Shown piece after piece: positions 20,701 to 60,560 of a stretch of 64,000 bases of DNA; position 1 is the stretch's first letter, and every line of letters starts with the position of its first letter. This stretch comes from Persicaria tinctoria (lineage: Eukaryota > Streptophyta > Magnoliopsida > Caryophyllales > Polygonaceae). Under the pieces are notes generated by a model. It was given only the letters and a program-made list of their open reading frames with translations, was not told where the DNA came from and searched no databases. A program made the position numbers and the translations under genes. The stretch covers positions 11,760,967 through 11,824,966 of the forward strand of contig JBANSL010000004.1 of NCBI GenBank assembly GCA_037127255.1, written 5' to 3'.

Positions 20701-23261
20701 AAGTTGGGGGAAATGTAGAGAAGAGTTGATAAAACATGAAATGTTTTTCCTGGTCTGAATGTGGATGAAGGAGAGCAATTTTTTTCCCCATTCTTTATCT
20801 TAATCGTGAAGGGATGATGGATTGGCGGTATAAGTGCTCCCTATAAATATTCTTGTTTTCCTGCCTTCAAATTGCCCTCAAGAGATGGTGAATGTCCAGG
20901 TGATGGGATCTTCTCCTGTCCATCATGTTCTCACTCTTTGAGCCAGCTATTGTTTTTTTTTTTTTTATTACTAAAAAGAAAAATTTATGATGTATCTTCT
21001 ATTTTAGTAATGCTGCTGAACGGGAGAGATGAGTGGTGATGTCATTAATTAAATTGGTGATCATCAGGTTTGGGAGATTAGTGGTGATGTCAGAAACCAT
21101 GGATTATGGTTCCACTGTTTTCCCCCATTTTGCATTTTATTGTATAGCTATATTAATGTTTTAATAATGTGATAGTTGCTCTATGTATGAGATGCTGGGA
21201 TCTCGCTATTCATTTCAGCTTTGTAATCTACTGCTACACCCTCCTAACTGTTGCTTCTCAGGTTCAACTGCTGCTGAATGGCCAAAGGAAGCAGATTATC
21301 CTGCATGGTTTGATCAGCATGGGCAGCTTGCTTCAAATTCATTGTACAGAACGTCGTCACATCCTGATCCCCAGCCGCATCATATTTCCACTCCAATTCC
21401 AGTACCCAAATCTTCCTTCCCTTCACATCCCCCCCATGGAGGAATGCCACAACAGGGATCGCTTAACATCCATTCGCAACATACAAATATTCCATATGCT
21501 GCTGGACAGTCTCAAATGTCTCCTTCCCAAAACATTTCATCCTTTCCGCGTTTTCCATCTGGATCACCGCACAATTCACGTTTTGTTGGAAATTTGTCCC
21601 ATTCGTCTCCTCCTGGTCATTCTGTCAATGGCCAGCCTCCTGGTCAATGGTTAAATCAAGCAGTGTATCATGGAGAGCGACCCAATGCTTTCAACTTGTT
21701 GCAGCAACAATTGCCTCATCAAAATGGAATGATGCCTCAGGTAGTCAATCAACAACCGCAGCAGCAGCAGCAGCGACAACAACACCCTAGACTACTACAT
21801 CCAATTCACCCCAATTTCAGCCACTTACCAGGAATGCATCCACAGTTGTATGGTCCCCAACTATCTGCATCCCCCCCTATAATGAACAATTTTGATGGTA
21901 TGCTAGGACTTCCTGATATGAGGGAGCAAAGACCGAATTCTTCACAGAGAAATAGACAGAACTTTTATCCTCAGCAGGATTATGATTACAGCAGCAGGAG
22001 GTTTGAAGGTGGTTGGCCACAGTTTAGATCCAAATACATGACAGTTTCTGAAATCGAAAATATTATAAGAATGCAGTTAGCTGCTACACACAGCAATGAT
22101 CCGTATGTTGACGACTATTATCATCAAGCTTGCCTTGCCAAAAAATCTGCTGGGGCAAGATTGAAACACCGTTTTTGCCCTAATTTGCTGAGAGAACATC
22201 CTCCGGGTGCTCGTCCTAGTGATGAACCTCACGCCTTCCTCCAAGTTGAGGCATTGGGAAGGATTCCATTCTCTTCTGTTCGCAGGCCTAGGCCGCTTCT
22301 TGAAGTGGAGCCTGCAAGTTCATCTGGTTCTGGTAGTGAACATAAGGCTGTTGAGAAATCACTTGAGCAGGAGCCGTTGCTTGCAGCAAGAGTAGCTATT
22401 GAAGACGGTATTAGTGTCCTCCTTGATGTTGAGGATATAGACCGATTCTTTCAGTTCAACCGATTCCAAGATGGTGGTGTTGAGCTGAAACAGAGGAGGA
22501 AGGCTCTCCTGGAAGAGTTAGCAGCTTCATTTCAGCTTGTTGACCCGCTAAATAATGATGTCCACACAGCTGGGCTAGCTCCCAATGATGATCTTGTGTT
22601 CCTACGGATAATCTCTCTTCCGAAAGGCAGGAAACTTCTATCGAGGTACCTTATAATGCTTAACCCTAGCGATGAGCTCCTTCGCACTGTCTGCATGGCC
22701 ATTTTTCGTCATTTGAGGTTCTTGTTTGGGGTCCCTCTCGCTAATCCAGTTATGGTTGAGACGACAGCTAAGCTTGCAGCAACTGTATCTTCCCGTGTTT
22801 GTGAAATGGATCTTAATGGGTTGAGTGCTTGTCTTGCTGCAGTTGTTTGCTCCTCAGAGCAGCCCCCTCTTCGGCCGATCGGAAGTTCTACAGGGGATGG
22901 TGCTTCTATTATTTTAAAGTGTGTGCTTGAACGTGCTACTGACTTGCGTAGAGATCCTCACATAGCTGCCTCTACCCCAAGTAGGGCATTTTCATTTTGG
23001 CAGGCTTCCTTTGATGCATTTTTCGATCTTCTGACAAAGTATTGTGTCAGTAAGTATGATACCATCATGCAGCCGTTGCTCCAGCAGGTCTCTCTGAACT
23101 CGGTTGCCACCGAATCAGATACTGCCAGAGCTATAAAGAAAGAGATGCCAGTTGAGCTGTTGCTGGCGAGTCTCCCTCACACCAATGACCGTCAGAGAAA
23201 GATCTTAATGGAATTCGCCCAGCGCACCGTTTCATCTAAGGGAGCTACTAGTCACGGTTAA
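17786..23261 (+). CDS. PAT1: PAT1-family topoisomerase II-associated / mRNA decapping protein
   Basis: PAT1 proteins activate mRNA decapping in P-bodies, bridging the LSM1-7 ring and DCP1/DCP2; Arabidopsis PAT1 is also a MAP kinase 4 substrate. Five exons keep frame with GT-AG introns: 17786-17846, 18527-18669, 19396-19452, 20384-20450 and 21262-23261. The product is 775 aa, the usual plant length. The N-terminal motif LFDASQYAFFGGD (about residues 24-36) is the conserved PAT1 signature. An acidic stretch follows, then a long Pro/Gln/Ser-rich linker (about 110-300, with a Q-run). The alpha-helical PAT1 C-domain starts near residue 485 (RVAIEDGISVLLDVEDIDRF) and runs to the end. No damage is seen. 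The start is the only Met in the exon 1 frame. Confidence 0.93.
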
Positions 23262-24495
23262 GGCATTGGTGGTCACAGCGGTTATGCTCGGGACATGCTA
23301 TTTGGATGAAGGCTGAATTGACAAAACTGATGTCGTAACATTGATGGTGATTCACAGGATAAACGAAGGAGGATCCAATGGTAGGAGATATTTGTGTTGA
23401 ATTATATTTTCTGGTGTAAAGTACTGGGAAATTTTGAAGTAAGTTGGTTTAAAGAAGATAAATTTGCTAGGTTATTTTTTGGGTGCCCTTTTGTTATTTT
23501 TTGGGTGCATAAGGAAATCAAGGAATATGATGTATACCGCTCTAGATAGGTTTTAGACGTTGGTTTGAATCTATGTGAGATTCTTCTTTTTGAATTTCAG
23601 AAAATTCTCCCCCTAAATTAATCGAAGATGGTAAATTATCGCTTCTGAAGTTTAACGTGACTGTTATTATTAATGCACATTTTAGGTTAAAAACTTCTGT
23701 ATACTTCAAAATATCATATTTTTTGAGAAAATTTGCCGAAAAGGTACGTTACATGCTCAAATTAGTCACATATCTTATATTTATATTGAGAAAATTTGCG
23801 CCGCATGTGCAAATTTTCGTACATATTAGGAGAATGTTCACGTTTTTAGACAAATTGAAGGAATGTCCATCTTAATTTTTATTTATTTAAAAAAAGCAAA
23901 CTCTAAATCTTATCATATCTCTTTTCTTCCATCCCCTCTCTCGCTCAAGCTTCCTCGATCTCCTCTCTCGCTCAATCAGATCAGATCTCCTTCCTGTCCC
24001 GCCGACCGAAGATTCACCGGATTCCTGCTCCTCCTTCTCCGATCTTTTTCAGACCGGGACGGGAACTACATAAGACACATCCGAACGAAGCACCCTGAGA
24101 TGCTCGGGATGGCCCGAGTCTAGACTCAATTATTTAGATACGTAACTACTTCCTCTCGTCCCACTGATTTATGGAGTTATGATTACGCTAGTTGTAGTGA
24201 TAACTTTGCTGAAATAATAGCTTCCGAAGGTTTAGCTTATGGTTTTTTCACAACATTTAGTTTTTAACGAATTTATGACGGAAAGTGTTCAGCTTGGCTG
24301 ACAATCTATTAGTCGTCAAACGGTTAAGAGGAAAGTGACGAGAAGGTATATATAACATCCGTAAACAAAAATTAATGGAGTATTTGAAAAAAACATAACA
24401 ATTTCCATGTTTCGATTTGTAGTGATATTTGGACCGAACATTTGCAACACCACTCATAAATTGATGTTACATGTCATTGGGTTGATAAAAAGTTT
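23262..24495. other. PAT1 3' region and unassigned intergenic sequence
   Basis: The first 300 bp or so are the likely PAT1 3' untranslated region. Beyond it, an open frame at 23863-24123 ends in RHIRTKHPEML, a weak echo of a C2H2 finger tail and possibly a gene fragment. The rest is AT-rich with no recognisable feature. Confidence 0.4.
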
Positions 24496-24500
24496 GTTTT

Positions 24501-24741
24501 TGTCATGTACATGGGGTATTAGATAGGGTATTAGTATAAATACCCTTATTAGTTGTAATTGAGGGATCATCAATGAATCAAATGCCAAATTACTCTTTCT
24601 CCCTAACCCTAACCTTTACTCTCTCATTTCTCTCTGTATCTCCTTCTTCCCTAAACTTCTTCCTCCTATTCTTAATCTCTTGTTCCTTAATTTATTCCCT
24701 TTTCTTATCAACTTTCCTAATCCATGCTTGGGAACATAACA
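24501..24741 (+). repeat. left LTR-like arm
   Basis: This 241-bp arm begins TG and ends CA. It contains AGTATAAATACCC (a TATA-box-like sequence at about 24532) followed by a pyrimidine-rich tract with CTAACCCTAACC. Orientation is plus, because the primer-binding site lies at its right side. Confidence 0.75.
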
Positions 24742-24743
24742 AT

Positions 24744-24755
24744 TGGTACCAGAGC
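24744..24755 (+). other. primer-binding site (iMet-type)
   Basis: TGGTACCAGAGC, two bases after the left LTR-like arm, is the usual complement of the initiator tRNA-Met 3' end used by plant LTR retrotransposons. No equivalent site is found next to the right arm. Confidence 0.75.
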
Positions 24756-25800
24756 AGTGAATCCTTTGACCTATATCACGAGTTTTTTCTGGAAGATTTC
24801 GATTTCGGCGGCTTAAACCCCGAATTGATTGCCGTGGGTGATCAACCATGGCTGTCGATGACAGGAACCGTCACTTTTACAAGAAAATTAATGATATCAG
24901 AAGGCATTGTGGTATGTCAGTGGTCAATTATCATTGTGATCCAGTCGCGGAGGAAAACCATGGCTGACAGAACGAGAGTGAGTTAAGCTTCGACACAATG
25001 AAGCAAACGATAGAAGCGATGACCAGGTCGCAAAAAGAAGCACAATTGGAGACCGAACGGAACTTCGATGAATCGCAACAAATCGCAGAGGAACGGCAAC
25101 GAATCACAGGGAAACAAAGAGGAATCGTGGATCAAGAATGGAAGTTGCGAATACAATAATATATCGGATCGACGATTCTACAAGAATCTCAACGAAATCA
25201 GAGTTCACTTTGGGATGCCACCGGTCGATTACTTGTGCGATTCAATCGGGGGTGGGAGCACTGCAATCATCGATCATGGCGAGCAAGATGCAGAGGAAAC
25301 CGATGGCGGCAGACTTGTGGAAGTCGAAGCTCCAGTTGTTCAGGATTCGCCGAGAATCGTCAATCATAAATTCAAGGTGCTTTCGGAGAGTGTTTTTGGC
25401 AATTCAAAAGCCAAGCTGGTCGACGATAATGCAGTAGAATCCACACAAACCAAAGAAATTCCAATTACTATTGAAGAGTTGAATCAACAAATTGATATTC
25501 CAATAAATCTTCTGGTCGATGGGTGGAAGGAACCCTCAAACTCAGAGAATGAAGCCAACATTGAAGAACCTCATACCCAACACAACGGTTTCAAGGTAAC
25601 TTCTGAGCCCTTTTAGTTTATCAGCTATTGTCGTGCAATCAAGGAGGTTGTTGAATTGGTTAAACTCTTGATCGAATGGATGGAAATTAGGCTAGCTAAT
25701 TCCAAGGTTAACAGGGTTGAGTTTAGGTTGAATTCAACGGATGGTTTGAGAAACTTTAGTGCAGAAAAGGTGTTCAGGAAAATGCCTTACAGATGGGTTT

Positions 25801-26024
25801 TGTTATGTGATCAATTTGGTTACAACAAAGTTGATAGGGAAAGGGAAAGAATTAAGGAAGAAGAGATTAAGAAAAGGAGGAAGAAGTTTAGGGAAGAAGG
25901 AGATACAAAGATAAAAGAGAGAGTAAGGGTTAGGGAGAAAGAGTAATTTGACATTTGATTCATTGATGATCCATCAATTATAACTAATAAGGGTATTTAT
26001 ATACTAATACCTATGTACATGACA
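25801..26024 (-). repeat. right LTR-like arm, inverted
   Basis: This 224-bp arm is the reverse complement of the left arm over its whole length, with small deletions. An open frame from the interior runs into it and reads a K/E/R-rich tail. That tail is a by-product of the pyrimidine tract being read on the other strand. Confidence 0.75.
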
Positions 26025-26029
26025 GTTTT

Positions 26030-26659
26030 ACACAAACGAGTTTTGACATTTCGCGTTTTTTATGAAGCTCTCACGACATGAAAAATAGTTCGTGTGATTT
26101 TAAACACTTTACAAGAATACACATTGATTCAAATAGTTTTTTCAATCGATTTTGACAACGCATCCGCAAACATCGCCTTTATTCCAGAATTAATCCAATA
26201 TTGTCGATCTCAAATCGGAGGAATTTTTTTTCACATTCGTTGCGCTTCTTTTTGTAAAGACACGTATTTTATAATGATTATTTTATAAATTACAATTTAA
26301 TTTCGATCGGATTTCTACGATTTTGAAAATTTTAAATATTTCCATTCTCAATCAAAATAATTTCATTTGATTCTTTTCGAAAATTCCAGCAAAAAGTTTA
26401 TTTTAAAAACGGATAATTCCATAAGTTTTGCGCGTTTTACAAGTTCAATTATTAAATTATAATAGAAAAATATTAAAATTTATTTTGGGAAGGATTGATG
26501 ATAAAGTTGAGAGAGTGAGTTTTAAGATATTTATTTTTGGGTAAAATTTGACTAAGTTTGGGACCTTTTCCCCCTTTCTCTCGGACTTGCACAAGCTGGG
26601 AAACCAGCCCTTTATTTCTCTTCCCTCCTGATCCTCGGATTTGTTTCCTTCCCCAATTG
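26030..26659. other. AT-rich intergenic sequence
   Basis: No gene or repeat structure is recognised. The composition is AT-rich up to about 26560 and more pyrimidine-rich afterwards. It ends at the target duplication of the next MITE. Confidence 0.5.
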
Positions 26660-26667
26660 ATGCCAAC

Positions 26668-27067
26668 TAGACCTGTCAAACGGGTTATTCGGGTCGGGTT
26701 TGGGTCGGGTCACTTCGGGTTTCGGGTAAAACGGGTCTTGGGTAAAATGGGTTTCGGGTTGACTCGAACTCGGATTTGACTGGGTTTGACCGGGTTTCGG
26801 GTCGATTTCGGGTTTGTTAATTTTTTCTTTTTTAAATTAAACAAATAATGATTTGATAATTTTTTGATAAATTTTAATTATATATAAAAAAAATTAATTA
26901 TATATAATTATAAATCAACCGGGTCAAAATTACCGGGTCAATCGGGTCACCTGGTCGAAACCCAGATTACCCGAAAAATTTCGGGTCAAAATTTCCGGGT
27001 TCGGGTCGGAAATTTTTCGGGTCGGGCAGATCGGGTCATCGGACCGGGTTGTGTTTTGATAGGTGTA
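26668..27067 (+). mobile_element. CGGGT-rich hAT-type MITE, copy 1
   Basis: The 400-bp element starts TAGACCTGTCAAAC and ends TTTTGATAGGTGTA. It is flanked by the 8-bp duplication ATGCCAAC (26660-26667 and 27068-27075), as expected for hAT. The interior is dominated by CGGGTCGGGT and TTTCGGGT motifs at both sides of an AT-rich centre. A diverged relative lies inverted at 43308-43756. Confidence 0.8.
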
Positions 27068-28884: not shown

Positions 28885-30294
28885 CTAATTGCCTCCACGC
28901 GTGGATCCAAATTTTTGCCAAATATGTTCCTTCAAGTCTTCCCTAAGTCGGCGGTGCGTACCATTGTCATGAAGATCATGCCTCTTCTTTATATACTCTT
29001 GCATAGTCGCATGGCGCTCGGTCGAAAATGTCCAAGCATCGTCGTCAACCGGTGCAGCCTCACCGCTTACACCTTCCTCGAATTGTGGAATCTTGTATCC
29101 ATGATGACTATAACCTTCTCGCTCGTCTTCCACGATCATATTGTGCAAAATAATGCATGCTCTCATTATCTTCCCGACCAAAATTGGATCCCAAGATAAT
29201 GCTGGATGACGAACTATTGCGAAACGAGCTTGCAGTACTCCAAATGCTCTTTCCACATCTTTGCGAGCGGAAGCCACATATTGAGCAAATAGCTTCATTT
29301 TGGTTCCTTGAGGAGCCTTTGGTGCTTTGACAAATGTAGCCCATTCAGGGTAGATCCCATCAGTAAGATAGTACCCCATGGAGTACTCGTGTCCCCCGAT
29401 ATTGAAATTAACATTCGGAGTTGTACCTTGTAAAATATCATCAAACACAGGGGATCGATCAAGAACGTTAATATCATTATTTGTACCTGGGACTCCGAAG
29501 AAAGCATGCCATATCCATAGGTCGTAGGATGCAACAGCCTCGAGTATAATTGTTGGATGACCATGATATCCACCCGCGAATTGACCTTTCCATGCAGTTG
29601 GGCAATTCTTCCAAGCCCAATGCATACAATCAATGCTACCCAACATTCCTGGAAAACCACGAGACTCTCCTACGCTCAGCAGACGTTGTATGTCTGCTGC
29701 ATTTGGTCGTCGAAGGTACTCGTCTCCAAAATAGTTGATGATTCCATCTACAAAATGGGACAAGCACAATCTTGCTGTGGCCCCTGATAGACGAAGGTAT
29801 TCATCACTAGCATCAGCAGCAAGGCCATATGCAAGAATGCGAATTGCACTTATGATTTTTTGCAACGCAGAAATGCCCATCCGTCCAGTGCAATCCGGCC
29901 GTTGTTGGAAGTACACCATCTCCGATTCCAAACGTTGAACGATGCGGTTGAAAACTCCCTTACTCATCCTGAACCTGCGTCGGAAGACCTCATCTGGGTA
30001 GGTTGACACCTCCGAGAAGTAGTCGCTTGACAATTGAGCGAAGCCCCTCTCCCTCCCTCTTTCAATGTGGGTACGGCGACGTCTCGTTCTTGAACTTTCA
30101 GGTTGTTGAAAAGTTTCTTGAGCTCGAACAGTAGCAGCTTTCCATGCTTCAAAGCAAGCTTGAAGCTCACCATCTCCGTCAGAGCTACTACTAGAAAGGA
30201 AAGGGTTTGTGTTTGAAGAATCTGAATCGGGGCTAGCCATTTGTTGGTGCTTTTGGGAAGGGATGAGTTTTGGATGTGGTGTGATTTTCTTCAA
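28885..30294 (-). CDS. PIF/Harbinger DDE transposase, intact
   Basis: The single 469-codon frame encodes a DDE_Tnp_4 (PF13359) nuclease. This enzyme cuts Harbinger/Tourist ends and inserts at TWA sites. The catalytic residues are all present: D222 in GSIDCMHW, D274 in NNDINVLD, and E348 in RKDVERAFGVLQ, counted from the first Met. The helix-turn-helix-like N-terminus (about residues 95-180) contains FRMSKGVFNRIVQRL. The N-terminal 70 residues are Ser/Asp-rich. Translation may start at the second Met (MASPDSDSS, residue 19). No stop or frameshift is seen. Its usual partner protein is encoded divergently or in tandem; here the partner lies upstream on the same strand at 31913-30798. Confidence 0.9.
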   Translation of the reverse strand: MKKITPHPKLIPSQKHQQMASPDSDSSNTNPFLSSSSSDGDGELQACFEAWKAATVRAQETFQQPESSRTRRRRTHIERGRERGFAQLSSDYFSEVSTYPDEVFRRRFRMSKGVFNRIVQRLESEMVYFQQRPDCTGRMGISALQKIISAIRILAYGLAADASDEYLRLSGATARLCLSHFVDGIINYFGDEYLRRPNAADIQRLLSVGESRGFPGMLGSIDCMHWAWKNCPTAWKGQFAGGYHGHPTIILEAVASYDLWIWHAFFGVPGTNNDINVLDRSPVFDDILQGTTPNVNFNIGGHEYSMGYYLTDGIYPEWATFVKAPKAPQGTKMKLFAQYVASARKDVERAFGVLQARFAIVRHPALSWDPILVGKIMRACIILHNMIVEDEREGYSHHGYKIPQFEEGVSGEAAPVDDDAWTFSTERHATMQEYIKKRHDLHDNGTHRRLREDLKEHIWQKFGSTRGGN

Positions 30295-30330
30295 AGTATG
30301 TAATGTTCATTTATATAGAAATGTAGAAGT

Positions 30331-30650
30331 CACATGCAATTTCAGAATTTGGAATCTCGAAGACTGACATTGAGTATACAAGGCTCTACCACAAACCGAC
30401 AACTCTCTATCACATGCAATTTCAGAATTTGGAATCTCGAAGACTGACATTGAGTAGACAAGGCTCTACCACAAACCGACAACTCTCTATCACATGCAAT
30501 TTCAGAATTTGGAATCTCGAAGACTGACATTGAGTAGACAAGGCTCTACCACAAACCGACAACTCTCTATCACATGCAATTTCAGAATTTGGAATCTCGA
30601 AGACTGACATTGAGTAGACAAGGCTCTGCCACAAACCGACAACTCTCTAT
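30331..30650. repeat. 80-bp tandem repeat, four copies
   Basis: CACATGCAATTTCAGAATTTGG recurs at 30331, 30411, 30491 and 30571, giving an exact 80-bp period and near identity. It lies between the transposase and its partner gene, where promoter or transposase-binding sites would be expected. A short AT-rich 20-bp repeat (ACATTAAAGAAACATGCATT) follows at about 30685-30770. Confidence 0.9.
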
Positions 30651-30684
30651 CACATGTAGATTCAAAATTTAAAAATGACAACTT

Positions 30685-32577: not shown

Positions 32578-32684
<107 letters not shown>

Positions 32685-33252
32685 TTGTCTAATGAACGAA
32701 ACCCTTGAGGAGGACTTTATATCAATTCTGTCATTCTACATGGTATCACATCTTTTTCTTCCTAACGGAACCCTAAATTGATCCTCCCGTCTCACCGGTC
32801 TTCTTCCTCCGACCTTCCCCCCGCGCCGCCATCCTCGAGCCCAGATCCGAACCTCGCACCCCTCTCTTTGTCCTATTCCCTCGCTCCCGGATCCGGCCAC
32901 CCACTGCGCCGCCAGCCTCTTCCTCCGACCTTCCTCCTCGCCGCCAGCATGCGCCGCCGTCCTCGTCGTCGCTTGTCCTCGCTCAGATCCGGTACACCCA
33001 TGCCCCGGAACTGCCACCCCGAGCACCCCCTCCCCAGATCCGAGCCCCTCCGTCTTTCCCTCGCGCGTCTTCAATCCGGACTCCACGAGCCCTAACACCC
33101 ACACCGAGCCATCTTTGTCGACTCAGGTCTCCGGTTACCGCTTTCCAACGAAGAAGAAAGCTTCGGTTTTTGTTTTGTCTTTTAATCTCTTTTGAAGTAA
33201 TTACAGAAATATCCTTTTATTTTACTATTTTTCGTTTCTGGCCCTGAGTTAA

Positions 33253-36680: not shown

Positions 36681-37048
36681 TCGACTGCGGGGGTTTGATA
36701 GATCACACACACACACATCATTGTCTAATGAACGAAACCCTTGAGGAGGACTTTACATCAATTCGCTCATTCTACATTAATTATATATATATATTAAGCA
36801 TTAATTTCAACCTATTTTGTTTAAACCGTATTTTGGGCTCCTTTAACAAAAGACGAATATTTTGTTTCGATGCACCGGTTTTCTGTTATTTATTGTATGT
36901 TTAGACATTTCCGCTTGCCGACTCATCGCCCTCTTCAAAATCGAGCTTGTCTCGTATCGAATCTTTACTTAATAAAAAAAAATAAAAAACGAATATTAAA
37001 AAGGAGAAACATTGAAACAAATAACATTTTGTAATATCCAAGTAATAA

Positions 37049-43307: not shown

Positions 43308-43756
43308 TAGACCTGGCAAAACACAATCCGATCCGGTGACCCGACCCGATCGACCCGAAAAATTTCCGAACCGAACCCGAAAATTTTGATCCGAATTTTT
43401 TTCGACCCGAACCCGAAAAACCCGAAATTTTCCGGGTAATCTGGGTTTCGACCCGTTGACCCGATTGACCCGCTAATTTTGACCCGATTGACCCGGTTGC
43501 TTTATAATTATATATAATTAATTTTTTTATATATAATTAAAATTTATCACAAAATTATCAAATAATGATTTTTTTAATTTAAAAAAGAAAAAATTGACAA
43601 ACCCGAAATCGACCCGAACCCGACCCGAAACCCGATCAAACCCGAGTTCGAGTCAACCCGAAAAACCCGGAACTCGTTTTACCAGAGACCCGTTTTACCC
43701 GAAACCCGAAGTGACCCGACCCGAACCCGACCCAAATGACCCCTTTGACAGGTCTA
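43308..43756 (-). mobile_element. CGGGT-rich hAT-type MITE, copy 2 (inverted)
   Basis: It starts TAGACCTGGCAAAAC and ends TTTGACAGGTCTA. The ACCCG-rich sides and AT-rich centre are the reverse complement of the copy at 26668-27067. No matching 8-bp duplication could be read at its ends, in contrast with copy 1. Confidence 0.7.
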
Positions 43757-43760
43757 GTAT

Positions 43761-46315: not shown

Positions 46316-47377
46316 TACTACTTTGTTAACCCTAGATCTAAGTCGTGTGAAGTATTAAACCCAAAGATCCAAGCCAAACAATTATATCACCAATGAGAAC
46401 TCAAGAAAAGCAAGCAGTAAAAATGATATGTTTATGGGGTTAAGGCTCGCATTCCTATATCCTCTAGGCCTTAAGATCAAGGCTCTAAATCCACTTTGAA
46501 TACTCGGTAACCAAACCAATATACAACAACACATCTAAGAACAGAATAACACAAGCAAACAAGAGATGTAGAAAACTCTTGATGCATTGTCGATGATTGA
46601 GATGTAGAAAACACATAAGTCGTCAAAGTTCTTCATCGGGCCGACAAAGCAAGATAGCTTCGACCTCCTAAATCTTCATCTCTCCCTTCTCTTTCTCCCT
46701 CTTGGAGAAAGGTTCTTTGAAACCATATATCAAATTAATCCTCTCTCTCTCATCGACTAAGCTTAAGTTAGCATGAACTGGATAAACAACTAGGGTTGAT
46801 CGCGAGCTTATAGAGCAAGCTACTTAACCAAAATGTTGCATTCTATCAAGAAACCTGTTTAATCATAGGTCACAACTTTGCCTCTCGAAATCGCACTAGA
46901 ATCTCGACCCGTTGACACCTTCGCCTCTCACTAGGTTATCACCCTTCATCTCTCACCAAAGAGTTCACTCTTAGCCTCTCACCAAAAATTTGATCATTAA
47001 TTAACCTGGAATCATAGGAATAAAAACATATAAAGTGAAAATATAGCCCCCAAGCATCTTTAATCGATGTGGGATTTTATTTTGATAGAAATAAAAACAT
47101 AAAAAAAATATCCGGATTTGAACAGCTGAAAAGAAGTCAAATTCGAGCAATTTCAAGGCCGATTTAGGTGAAGTTTCCTTCATGGAAGTTGTAGCCACTT
47201 AGAATAGCTTTCCAACACGTGCTCATCAGCTTCAATCAGAATATTATGTAGCCCAAAAGAGCTAAAATACTACGGTGTCGCCACATAGTTTTCTCAAACG
47301 AGAGTTGATGTTTAGCTCCAGCGACAAAACTTTGTAAGATGAAGGAGTTGAGCTCATTAACGATTAGGATCACATCA

Positions 47378-52470: not shown

Positions 52471-52935
52471 GCTCTTAGCCTCTCACCAAGAACTTGATTC
52501 TTAACCTGAATTATAGGAAGCTATTGGTGGCTCAACTTTTAACTCAACTCAATTTAACTTTCTTAAAATGATGTTCTTACAAGAAATATATAGAGTGAAA
52601 ATAAAGCCCCCAAGCATCTCTAATTGATGTGGGATTTTATTTTGATAGAAATAAAAGCATGAAAAAATATCTGGATTTGAACTGCTGAAAAGAACATCAA
52701 ATTCAAGCATCTTCGAGGTTGATTTAGGAGAAGTGTCCTTCATGGAAGTTGTCGCGACTTAGAATAGCTTTCCAACAAAAGCTTATCGGCTTCAATCTAA
52801 ATATTATGTAGCCTAAAAGAGCCAAAATACTACGGGGTCGCCACACAGTTTTCTCAAACGAGGGTTGATGTTCAGCTCTAGCGACAAAGCTTTGTATGAT
52901 AAAGAAGTCAAGCTCGTTAAAGTAGGATCACATCA

Positions 52936-56483: not shown

Positions 56484-59111
56484 TATTGAGATAAACTAGG
56501 ATATTTGTTAGATATATATTTACTTATATCTTTATCACATCTTATCTAATTAGGATAGAATATTTCTCCCCTACATGTATCTATTTAATCAAAAAGTTCA
56601 ATCAATGAGAAAAGACAATCTTTTCCCTATTTAACGGGTCTGAGTTCCTTGCTCTTCGTCCCTACCTTACCGATCATGGCATACTCTTTGAGTCTTCCTG
56701 TATCGCCACACCTCAACAGAATGGTCGTGTCGAGCATAAACATCGTCATATCCTCAATGTGGCTCGCGCTCTCATGTTTCAAGCCCACCTTCCTGTTCGG
56801 TTTTGGGGGGAGTGTACACTCACTACTTGCTATCTCATAAACCGCACCCCCTCCTCTGTTCTCAAAGGTAAAACACCCTATGAATGTCTCTTCAATAAAC
56901 CCCCCACTTACACTCATCTTTGGGTTTTTGAATGTCTCTGCTATGCATCCGTCATCCCTCGCTCTACAAACAAATTCTCTCCTCGGAGTCGTAAGTGTCT
57001 GTTCATCGGTTATCCCTTTGGTCAGAAGGGTGGCGCCTCTATGATCTCACTACGCATCAGATTTTTGTCTCTCGGGATGTTTCGTTTCATGAGGATATAT
57101 TCCCCTACGAGCAAATTGAGTCACCTGATCCTACGCCGCCCATTCATCCATCTCCTGCTACCCATGACGAGGTTCTGCCACCTCCAGACCCTCAACCGGT
57201 AGACCCTCAGCCACCCCCTCCTCGTCCCTCTACTCGCCACCATAACCCCTCCGTGCTGCTGCGAGATTATATCTGTCATACTCTTCGCAAGGTGGATCCT
57301 ATTTCGGCCTCATCTACTTCCGTCGCGTCGTCAGGTACTCCTTATCCCTTAGCTAATTATGTCAATACACATTCTATTACTCCTCAGCACATCCACTTCT
57401 TAGCCACCATTGCCGCCACTCCAGAGCCACCATCCTTCCAGGAGGCATTCCGTCATTAGCATTGGCGGGATGCTATGCGTTCTGAAATTGATGCTCTTCA
57501 TCGCAATGGAACCTGGGAGGTCACTGACTTACCTCCTCGCAAGAAGGCTATCGGCTGTAAGTGGGTCTTTCGGGTGAAGTACAATTCAGACGGAAGTATT
57601 GAGCGGCACAAAGCTCGCCTTGTGGTTCTTGGAAACAAACAGATTGAGGGCACTGATTTCTCTGAGACATTCGCTCATGTTGCTAAATTGCTGTCTGTCA
57701 AAGTTGTTCTTGCAGTAGCTTCTATTCAGAACTGGGAGCTCCATCAAATGGACGTTCACAATGCATTTCTTCATGGTGATCTTCATGAAGAGGTATACAT
57801 GTCCTTGCCTCCCGGATTCTCTAAAGTCGGCTCCTCCAAAGTGTGTAGACTCCGAAAATCGCTCTATGGCCTTCGGCAAGCACCTCGGAACTGGTTCGCT
57901 AAGCTGGCCTCCGCTCTTCGCCAGGTCAGTTTCTCTCAGTCTTATGCTGACTACTCTCTATTCTCCTATGCTCGGTCTAGTGTTATTCTACATGTGCTCA
58001 TCTATGTTGATGACTTGATCATTACAGGCAAGTACTCTGCCTCTATCAATCGGTTCAAGAGCTATCTTCACTCCTGCTTTCGTATGAAAGATCTTGGTCA
58101 TCTCAAGTACTTCCTCGGCATAGAGGTCTCTCGAACCTCTTCTGGCATCGTTCTGTCTCAGCGCAAATATACTCTAGACATCTTGGGTGAGGTCGGCCTT
58201 CTTGGATCCAAACCGGCCACCCTTCATATGGAACAGAACCACACGCTCGCTCTAGACACCAGTCCTCTTCTTTAGAAGCCGAATCAGTATCGCCGGGTTA
58301 TTGGTCGTCTCATCTACCTCACGATCACTAGACCCGATTTGTCTTAATTCGTCCACATTCTGACTCAATTCATGCAGCAACCTCACCAGGCTCATTGGAC
58401 AGCTGCCCTGCGTGTCCTCCGGTATCTCAAGGGTCGGCCGGATCAGGGACTCTTCCTCTCTCGACACAACGATCTTCACTTGATTGCCTATTGCGACTCT
58501 GACTATGCCACGTGTCCGTTGACTCGTCGATCACTCACTGGCTACATCGTTAAGATCGGTGAGTCCTCGGTATCCTGGAAAACCAAGAAACAAACTACAG
58601 TCTCTCGCTCTTCTGCTGAAGCCGAGTACAGAGCCATGTCGACCACTACTTGTGAGTTGATTTGGCTCAAAGCTCTTCTTCGCTCTCTCGGCTTTGCCCA
58701 TCGGACTCATATGCGCTTATGGTGTGACAATCAGTCGGCACTCCACATCGCCTCCAATCCAGTATTTCATGAGCGCACGAAGCATATTGAAGTGGACTGT
58801 CACATTGTCCAGGATTAGGTTCAATCAGGCAACATCGCCCTATCTCATATTCACTCTTCCAATCAGCTGGCAGACATCTTCACCAAGGCACTGGGAGAGC
58901 ATCAGTTTCATCTTCTCTTGTCCAAGTTGGGCATTCATCTTCACCATGCTCCAACTTGAGGGGGAATATTGAGATAAATTAGGATATTTGTTAGATATAT
59001 ATTTCCTTATGTCTATATCACATCTTATCTAATTAGGATAAAATATTTCTCCCCTACATGTATCTATTTAATCAAGTTCAATCAATGAGAAAAGACAATC
59101 TTTTCCCTATC
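56484..59111 (+). mobile_element. Ty1/Copia LTR retrotransposon 2, 5' internal deletion
   Basis: The 5' LTR (56484-56630) and 3' LTR (58967-59111) are about 146 bp and nearly identical, both starting TATTGAGATAAA. The 5-bp duplication AAAAT flanks it (56479-56483 and 59112-59116). The purine tract TTGAGGGGGAA precedes the 3' LTR. The 5' LTR is joined directly to the middle of integrase, so the primer-binding site, gag and protease are lost. It is inserted in the LINE remnant. Confidence 0.9.
56631..58960 (+). pseudogene. Copia 2 integrase (part), RT and RNase H
   Basis: The frame opens in the integrase core (ATPQQNGRVEHKHRHI) and shifts once near 57010. It then continues through the linker to reverse transcriptase (GCKWVFRVKYNSDGS, HQMDVHNAFLHGDL, YVDDLIITG) and RNase H (YCDSDYATCPLTRRS, SRSSAEAEYRAM). 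In-frame stops occur at 57457-57459, 58273-58275, about 58345 and 58816-58818. The catalytic YVDD is intact at about 58003. It cannot encode a full polyprotein. Confidence 0.88.
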
Positions 59112-59219
59112 AAAATTGTTCAAAAATGGAAAAATAATTAAATTTTGAACTAACAGATGGGTTGAAAATAAACCGCTACTAGAAAAAACAATTACCGGTG
59201 CTAAATATCATGGGAAATA

Positions 59220-60141
59220 CTCCCTCCGTTCCAAAATACATGGGCTTTTGGTTTTTGGCACGTTTTTTAAGGAGCGAAAAACTCTATAAAATATTATTTT
59301 TTAGTTAATTTTTTTTATAAAATTTGATACTTATTAGTATTACTAAGGGAAATTTACAGAAAACCACCCCTTAAATGTAGGTCTTTTCACTTAACCACCC
59401 CTTAAATTTGAAATTACAGTAAACCACCCCTTAAATGCTTTTCATTAACAAATCACCACCCTTAGTCTATTTTTGTTAAGTCATCCTTAGATATATTATA
59501 TTTCAATATTTTTAAACTCAAAATTTATGTGTAAATATATTTAAAATTTGAACTAAAGGGGTTGGATTGTTATAGATATCATTTTAAAAAAAAACTTACA
59601 AATATAACTTACAAATATCTTCCGGTTTATGTCTTAAAATAATTTTGTAAACATTAGTTAAATTATTTTTTAAGTATAATATGATTATAAATAATAATTT
59701 CCATTTATATAGTTAAAAATAATATTAAAATTATTTATTTATATTTTAAAAATTGTATTTCAATAATTAACCTTTGGAGAAAAATTAAAAAAACCTTTAA
59801 AAATAGGTTATTACTCACAATTGAAATAATTAAACGCATATTTTAAGTTAAAAAATGTTAAAAATATAATTTATTAAACAAAAACATAATGTAAATTGGT
59901 GATGGGTGGTGATTTGTTAGTGGAAAGCATTTAAGGGGTGGTTTACTGTAATTTCAAATTTAAGGGGTGGTTAAGTGAAAAGACCTACATTTAAGGGGTG
60001 GTTTTCCGTAAATTTCCCTATTACTAATAAGTATCAAATTATATAAAAAATTTAATTAAAAAAATAATATTTCATAGAGTTTTCCGCTCCTTAAAAAACG
60101 TGTCAAAAAGAAAAAACCCATGTATTTTGGAACGGAGGTAG
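59220..60141. mobile_element. Stowaway-type MITE carrying a nested MITE
   Basis: It starts CTCCCTCCGTTCCAAAATAC and ends GTATTTTGGAACGGAGGTAG, with TA on both sides (59218-59219 and 60142-60143). Inverted homology covers about 120 bp per side (ACATGGGCTTTT, GGAGCGAAAAACTCTATA). Without the inner insertion it would be about 240 bp, the normal Stowaway size. Confidence 0.85.
59347..60018. mobile_element. MULE-type MITE with 114-bp TIRs
   Basis: The ends GGGAAATTTAC and GTAAATTTCCC are perfect inverted repeats. The inverted arms extend at least 110 bp and each contains three AACCACCCCTTAAAT repeats. The 9-bp duplication TATTACTAA flanks it at 59338-59346 and 60019-60027, which identifies a Mutator-like insertion. 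The 440-bp centre is AT-rich and non-coding. It sits in the centre of the Stowaway MITE. Confidence 0.88.
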
Positions 60142-60560
60142 TAAAGAAGACATAATTGAAGACTTTTTGGACCAAAATAAAGAATGGAACATAGACCCCT
60201 TAAACGAGTCCTCCCAATAGAATTGGTGAACAAAATAATAGACATATGTCTTGAAGTAAACAACATTAAGAAAGAACTCTACTGGAAAACGAGCAAAGGC
60301 GAGTGGTTCTCCACAACTAGTGCATTGAAATTCATTTCTCAAACAAATTGCGAGAATCGTTGTGATTTCCCATGAATATGGAACATTGACACATTCGAAA
60401 ATTAAGAATTTTATATGAAAACTCACACTAGACAGACGACCAACAACATTCAGACTTGCCTGTTAAGGAGTCGATGTTCCCCTCAATTACATAATGTGTA
60501 ACCATCCTCCAAAAGATTGGATTCACCTTTTCATAAAGTGCATCTATACGCTCTACCTCA

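What the first reader, a model, noticed from the sequence alone, without database searches (positions are those of the whole stretch)
24496..26029. Element with inverted LTRs but a normal 5-bp target duplication
The left arm has all the marks of a 5' LTR (TG..CA ends, TATA-like box, adjacent iMet primer-binding site). The right arm is the same sequence reverse-complemented. Both outer ends are therefore TGTCATGTAC, and GTTTT flanks the unit. An integrase-type insertion of a unit with two U3 outer ends is not the standard retrotransposon cycle. It could arise by template switching, by auto-integration followed by re-insertion, or as a lineage that uses LTR-derived terminal inverted repeats. The interior also has a 182-codon frame with no family I recognise.
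Basis: partly seen in the sequence, partly recalled or inferred. Interest (0 to 1): 0.75.

Follow-up and report, generated by a model that had tools for sequence, protein, structure and literature searches.

The report
Small retrotransposon with back-to-front LTRs
A small decayed plant retrotransposon has its two end repeats pointing in opposite directions but still shows a normal-looking insertion scar, most likely one faulty insertion or two overlapping old ones; copies elsewhere in the genome, which would decide, could not be searched.

Summary
The observation largely holds. In a plant window (PAT1 gene 71% identical to a Rumex protein), 24501-24741 is an LTR followed by a primer-binding-like site. 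25801-26024 is a second, complete LTR of the same family in reverse. GTTTT flanks the pair. Three details were missed. (1) The arms are not one sequence: 183 of 198 ungapped columns match outside the last 26, but an 18-base block near the U5 end matches at only 5, so the arms probably come from two sister LTRs. (2) The right arm stops at the LTR's U5 terminus and has no primer site. (3) Its inner edge reads GGGTTTT|GTTATG, so the right arm alone could be a solo LTR with its own imperfect GTTTT duplication. Favoured: one insertion of a chimeric cDNA with two U3 ends (exact outer duplication; composition break at the right arm's outer edge). Close rival: a solo LTR nested in a 3'-truncated element. 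A mobile family with LTR-derived inverted repeats is not excluded but lacks positive evidence. The interior is a decayed coding remnant without detected relatives. The deciding search, for other copies in the host genome, did not complete in 18 attempts.

The parts
24496..24500 (.). GTTTT, left copy of the putative 5-bp target-site duplication
   Evidence: GTTTT is 0.0027 of the window's pentamers
24501..24741 (+). left arm: complete LTR (TG..CA, 241 bp; TATAAATA near 24535; CT-rich downstream part)
   Evidence: tRNA assignment recalled
24756..25800 (+). interior without recognised gag-pol domains: decayed coding remnant
24848..24961 (+). first copy of a repeated peptide module, starting at an ATG 92 bases after the primer-binding-like site
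25149..25262 (+). second copy of the module, in another frame
   Evidence: 14 of 38 columns identical; tblastn E 9e-7 against the window
25068..25616 (+).
   Evidence: no Pfam match; single-sequence fold unusable, mean pLDDT 31
25797..25801 (.). GTTTT at the inner edge of the right arm, overlapping its first base: possible imperfect duplication belonging to the right arm alone
25801..26024 (-). right arm: complete LTR of the same family in reverse (224 bp), with no primer site or polypurine tract seen beside it
26025..26029 (.). GTTTT, right copy of the putative target-site duplication

Best explanation
One aberrant insertion of a small non-autonomous LTR retrotransposon. Inferred steps: (1) the processed U5 end of an LTR from a sister element was joined to the interior of a second element's cDNA, by half-site integrase attack on the minus strand or by an end-to-end template jump. 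This lost the second element's 3' part and gave a linear molecule with a U3 end at each side. (2) Integrase inserted that molecule with a staggered 5-bp cut and duplicated GTTTT. (3) If the sister was full length, its own two direct LTRs later recombined to leave one. Shown here: the anatomy, the outer GTTTT pair, the LTR ends, the divergence of the arms. Inferred: the joining step and the use of two U3 ends.
For: Exact 5 of 5 outer pair at the very ends of the arms' likeness (GTTTT frequency 0.0027). The right flank fits a host-flank model better than an element-interior model: +14.3 log units for 26030-26229 (GC 0.33) and +42.4 for 26030-26429 (GC 0.28), against GC 0.39 in the last 200 interior bases. 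The right arm ends at the U5 terminus with no primer site, as an integrase-type joint would. Unrelated blocks near the U5 ends imply two parents. Passages name inverted 2-LTR circles as an outcome of Ty self-integration, citing earlier work (PMC4751563), and inversion circles for HIV-1 (PMC2644782).
Against: The inner GTTTT (25797-25801) must be coincidence: of 3965 TG sites in the window a fraction 0.039 is preceded by GTTTT within one mismatch, and 46 by G plus three to five T. No second copy in the window, and none could be sought in the genome. The study behind PMC4751563 saw no inverted circle in its own reads. No report with this anatomy turned up in the searches. Integrase use of two U3 ends is not established here (one search listed one paper, not opened). 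The composition argument is weak if the element's own 3' part was AT-rich, and the interior control is part of its training set.
Confidence: 0.45

Rival explanations
1. Two independent insertions. The left arm plus interior is a 3'-truncated element. The right arm is a solo LTR of a sister element that inserted in reverse into it, with its own GTTTT duplication whose inner copy has lost or changed one base; LTR-LTR recombination left the solo LTR. The GTTTT before the left arm is coincidence.
For: Right arm complete at both termini, with neither primer site nor polypurine tract seen beside it; GGGTTTT|GTTATG at its inner edge; the arms differ as two sister LTRs would (183 of 198 columns, then a block matching at 5 of 18); only common processes are needed.
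Against: Needs the exact GTTTT before the left arm by chance (0.0027) while its own duplication is imperfect. The sequence right of 26029 differs from the interior in composition. No same-family LTR in direct orientation was found in the 38 kb to the right (only short matches, the best 24 columns at E 0.043), so the truncation would have to coincide with the solo LTR's position.
Confidence: 0.3
2. A mobile family: a unit bounded by LTR-derived terminal inverted repeats, inserted repeatedly by a copia-type integrase supplied in trans, and copied as DNA or by a non-standard reverse transcription.
For: Integrase-type outer ends and GTTTT pair; a + strand frame runs from 25068 through the right arm to 25946 with a single TAG, as a settled structure might.
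Against: No second copy in the window. Without a direct 3' R the standard first strand transfer cannot work (established retroelement biology, recalled). The open run in the right arm is expected from its purine-rich strand, and arm differences fall on 4, 3 and 2 of 40 sites at codon positions 1, 2 and 3, so there is no sign of coding constraint.
Confidence: 0.08
3. Assembly or haplotype join error near 25.8 kb that set an unrelated reverse LTR against the left element.
For: Repeats of one family are places where assemblies misjoin (general knowledge); no reads or second assembly were available.
Against: The joint sits at an LTR terminus, and the outer GTTTT pair would be coincidence.
Confidence: 0.07

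Closest known systems
TRIM / LARD-type non-autonomous plant LTR retrotransposons (TRIM paper PMC4717578 seen as search listing and abstract start only; LARD recalled)
   Same: short LTRs with TG..CA ends, primer-binding-like site, short duplication, no gag-pol found
   Different: they have direct LTRs; here the second LTR is reversed and no polypurine tract precedes a 3' LTR
Self-integration products of LTR elements: inverted 2-LTR circles (PMC4751563 and PMC2644782, passages)
   Same: an LTR end joined to element interior, giving LTRs in opposite orientation
   Different: those are circles, called nonproductive in PMC2644782, and PMC4751563 saw none in its own reads; here a linear unit sits in a chromosome with an outer GTTTT pair, the arms are sister LTRs, and the repeated pentamer is direct
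DIRS-type retrotransposons with inverted LTRs (PMC5633606, passages)
   Same: inverted terminal repeats around an interior
   Different: they use a tyrosine recombinase and a circular intermediate; no such domain was found here, and there is a 5-bp pair at the ends
Solo LTR nested in another element (general knowledge)
   Same: the right arm's anatomy fits a solo LTR
   Different: its inner duplication is imperfect, and the outer element does not visibly continue on the right

Membership tests
LTR retrotransposon (integrase type) | LTRs with TG..CA termini | tested here: met
   both arms
LTR retrotransposon (integrase type) | two LTRs in direct orientation | tested here: not met
   arms inverted; no direct copy beyond short matches in the window
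LTR retrotransposon (integrase type) | primer-binding site behind the 5' LTR | tested here: met
   TGGTACCAGAGC at 24744-24755; assignment to tRNA-iMet recalled, one base off
LTR retrotransposon (integrase type) | polypurine tract before the 3' LTR | tested here: not met
   three purine runs of 9 on the + strand of 24743-25800 and none on the other, none next to an arm; outer sides read by eye
LTR retrotransposon (integrase type) | 4-6 bp target-site duplication | tested here: met
   outer GTTTT pair; whether it belongs to the whole unit or to the right arm alone is the open question
LTR retrotransposon (integrase type) | gag-pol domains (autonomous members) | tested here: not met
   no Pfam match above cut-off; two sub-threshold matches, E 0.066 and 0.28: at best non-autonomous
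Solo LTR (right arm alone) | complete LTR flanked by its own short duplication | tested here: inconclusive
   GGTTT (or GTTTT minus one base) against GTTTT
DIRS-type element | tyrosine recombinase gene | tested here: not met
   no such Pfam match in the interior frames; a non-autonomous member would also lack it
DIRS-type element | no target-site duplication (recalled, not in the passages) | tested here: not met
   outer GTTTT pair present
Mobile family with LTR-derived terminal inverted repeats | several copies with the same arrangement and different duplications | not tested
   host-genome search requested 18 times, never answered

The most novel reading that the evidence does not exclude
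A plant lineage in which LTRs have become the terminal inverted repeats of a small unit that a copia-type integrase inserts with normal 5-bp duplications: a retrotransposon turned into a DNA-like, integrase-borne element.
Probability: 0.08. Interest if true: 0.75.

Novelty: new variant of a known kind. Interest (0 to 1): 0.33.

Why it matters
If the single-insertion reading holds, this is a chromosomal fossil showing that a retroelement integrase accepted two U3 ends on a chimeric cDNA in nature, where self-integration products are otherwise described as nonproductive circles (PMC2644782, passages). If copies exist, it would be a route from retrotransposon to inverted-repeat element. If it is two nested insertions, it is ordinary.

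Tried and rejected
Host-genome search for other copies: the same request, 18 attempts, never answered. Protein relatives: none at E <= 1 from 703 candidates for the interior frame and none at E <= 10 from 5 candidates for residues 184-260, in a database that does hold plant proteins. Viral contigs: none confirmed (5 pattern stretches). Genome contigs: none (176 pattern stretches, none confirmed). These two collections are viral and prokaryotic, so silence there means little.

Rejected: that the open frame through the right arm shows a settled gene (purine-rich strand; differences on 4, 3 and 2 of 40 sites at codon positions 1, 2, 3). That a hairpin across the rejoined flanks supports one insertion (6-bp stem; 6.4% of 3000 random junctions do as well). 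That the shared ACATAACA end is chance. DNA-transposon terminal repeats (TG..CA ends, primer-like site, 5-bp pair; inference). Plain intramolecular self-integration (orientation of the pentamer in my derivation; unrelated blocks). Structure of the 182-residue frame: mean pLDDT 31, not searched further.

Papers: nine searches. Passages seen of PMC2151762 (the matching phrase is a figure legend on LTR primers, not relevant), PMC5633606, PMC4751563, PMC2644782. The other listed papers were seen as listings and abstract starts only.

Full report
Setting. The window is plant DNA. The frame at 21183-23261 is a PAT1 protein, 71% identical over 96% to one from Rumex salicifolius, the best of 1010 matches of which 120 were listed (Polygonaceae). 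The next named hits are other Caryophyllales and other eudicots, so the host is probably in or near Polygonaceae; the genus is not settled. Copia reverse-transcriptase fragments and a Plant_tran/DDE_Tnp_4 transposase lie nearby (the label PIF/Harbinger is recalled). The element begins about 1.2 kb beyond the PAT1 stop.

Anatomy. The left arm is 24501-24741, TGTCATGTACAT...ACATAACA, followed by AT and TGGTACCAGAGC. The right arm is 25801-26024, the same LTR family in reverse. blastn finds 89.5% identity over 191 columns, E 4e-69. In a global alignment 183 of 198 ungapped columns match outside the last 26, with gaps of 1, 10 and 6 bases. Then come 18 columns of which 5 match, and then the shared end ACATAACA at the same offset, where the likeness stops. 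The reverse complement of that end, TGTTATGT, occurs at 7e-5 per position in the window, so the shared end is very probably homology and the right arm a whole LTR. Point mutation of two identical LTRs does not explain the unrelated block, so the arms most likely descend from two sister LTRs (inference).

Flanks. GTTTT stands at 24496-24500 and 26025-26029. It makes up 0.0027 of the window's pentamers. But the right arm's inner edge reads CAGATGGGTTTT|GTTATG, i.e. GTTTT at 25797-25801, overlapping the arm's first base. Read as a duplication of the right arm alone, it is GGTTT against GTTTT, or GTTTT with one T lost. Of 3965 TG sites in the window, a fraction 0.039 is preceded by GTTTT within one mismatch, and 46 are preceded by G plus three to five T. 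The exact outer pair is therefore the less likely coincidence, four- to fifteen-fold on my own arithmetic; the inner one is not negligible.

Where does element DNA end? A second-order Markov model trained on 23261-24500 fits 26030-26429 better than one trained on 24848-25800, by 42.4 log units (14.3 for the first 200 bases). The last 200 interior bases go the other way by 10.2, but they are in the training set. This favours the right arm's outer edge as the border, as one insertion requires. It is composition only. No copy of the LTR or of the interior was found elsewhere in the window beyond short weak matches (best: 23 columns at E 0.007 near 11.5 kb; 26 columns at E 0.49 in the right flank).

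Interior. No Pfam family reaches its cut-off (two sub-threshold matches, E 0.066 and 0.28). A peptide module occurs twice, at 24848-24961 and 25149-25262, in different frames, with 14 of 38 columns identical (tblastn against the window E 9e-7). The interior therefore looks formerly coding, now broken by stops and at least one change of frame. From the ATG at 24848, frame 1 meets a TGA after 39 codons and a TAA at 25157; frame 2 is open from 25068 to a TAG at 25614, and then on through the right arm to 25946. That last run is not evidence for a gene: the strand is purine-rich, and the arms differ on 4, 3 and 2 of 40 sites at codon positions 1, 2 and 3. No relatives were found in a protein collection that does include plants.

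Mechanism. Standard reverse transcription yields two direct, identical LTRs, so something else happened. Self-integration is described for Ty elements as giving inverted 2-LTR circles (PMC4751563, passages, citing earlier work; that study's own reads showed none) and for HIV-1 as giving nonproductive deletion or inversion circles (PMC2644782, passages). In my derivation the circle would put AAAAC before the left LTR, which is not seen. A half-site attack of a sister LTR's processed U5 end on the minus strand of the left element's cDNA, or an end-to-end template jump, gives exactly left LTR - primer site - interior - reversed LTR, with a U3 end at each side. Ordinary integrase action would then add the GTTTT pair. 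If the sister was full length, later recombination between its own direct LTRs leaves one. These steps are inferred. The rival, a solo LTR nested in a truncated element, uses only common processes and explains the LTR ends and the inner GTTTT, but needs the outer GTTTT and the position of the truncation to be coincidences.

Limits. The test that would settle most of this, other copies in the host genome, was requested 18 times and never answered. Paper searches listed no report of this anatomy by title or abstract; the library lacks most subscription journals, so that is weak.

Verdict. A real and odd structure, most likely a rearranged insertion of a known kind of element; not shown to be a family.

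Noticed in passing
window 24848-24961 and 25149-25262: A 38-residue peptide module repeated in two frames of the element's interior, with no Pfam match.
   Followed up: partly
window 59218-60143: Long inverted repeat (arm pieces of 158 and 125 bases, 88% complementary), MITE-like.
   Followed up: no
window 26666-27067 and 43308-43758: Two copies in opposite orientation of a CGGGTC-rich repeat, 85-94% complementary in four pieces.
   Followed up: no
window 47024-47377 and 52584-52935; 56484-56630 and 58967-59110; 32681-32741 and 36717-36777: Direct repeat pairs at 87%, 94.6% and 95% identity; the last two flank copia fragments. Possible LTR pairs; their ends are not settled.
   Followed up: partly
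window 28885-30294 (-): Open 469-codon Plant_tran/DDE_Tnp_4 transposase frame (E 3e-105), possibly an uninterrupted PIF/Harbinger-type gene.
   Followed up: no
window 30330-30670 and 675-2223: Tandem arrays (80-base unit with 97% matches; several arrays at the left end, among them 22-23-base units).
   Followed up: no
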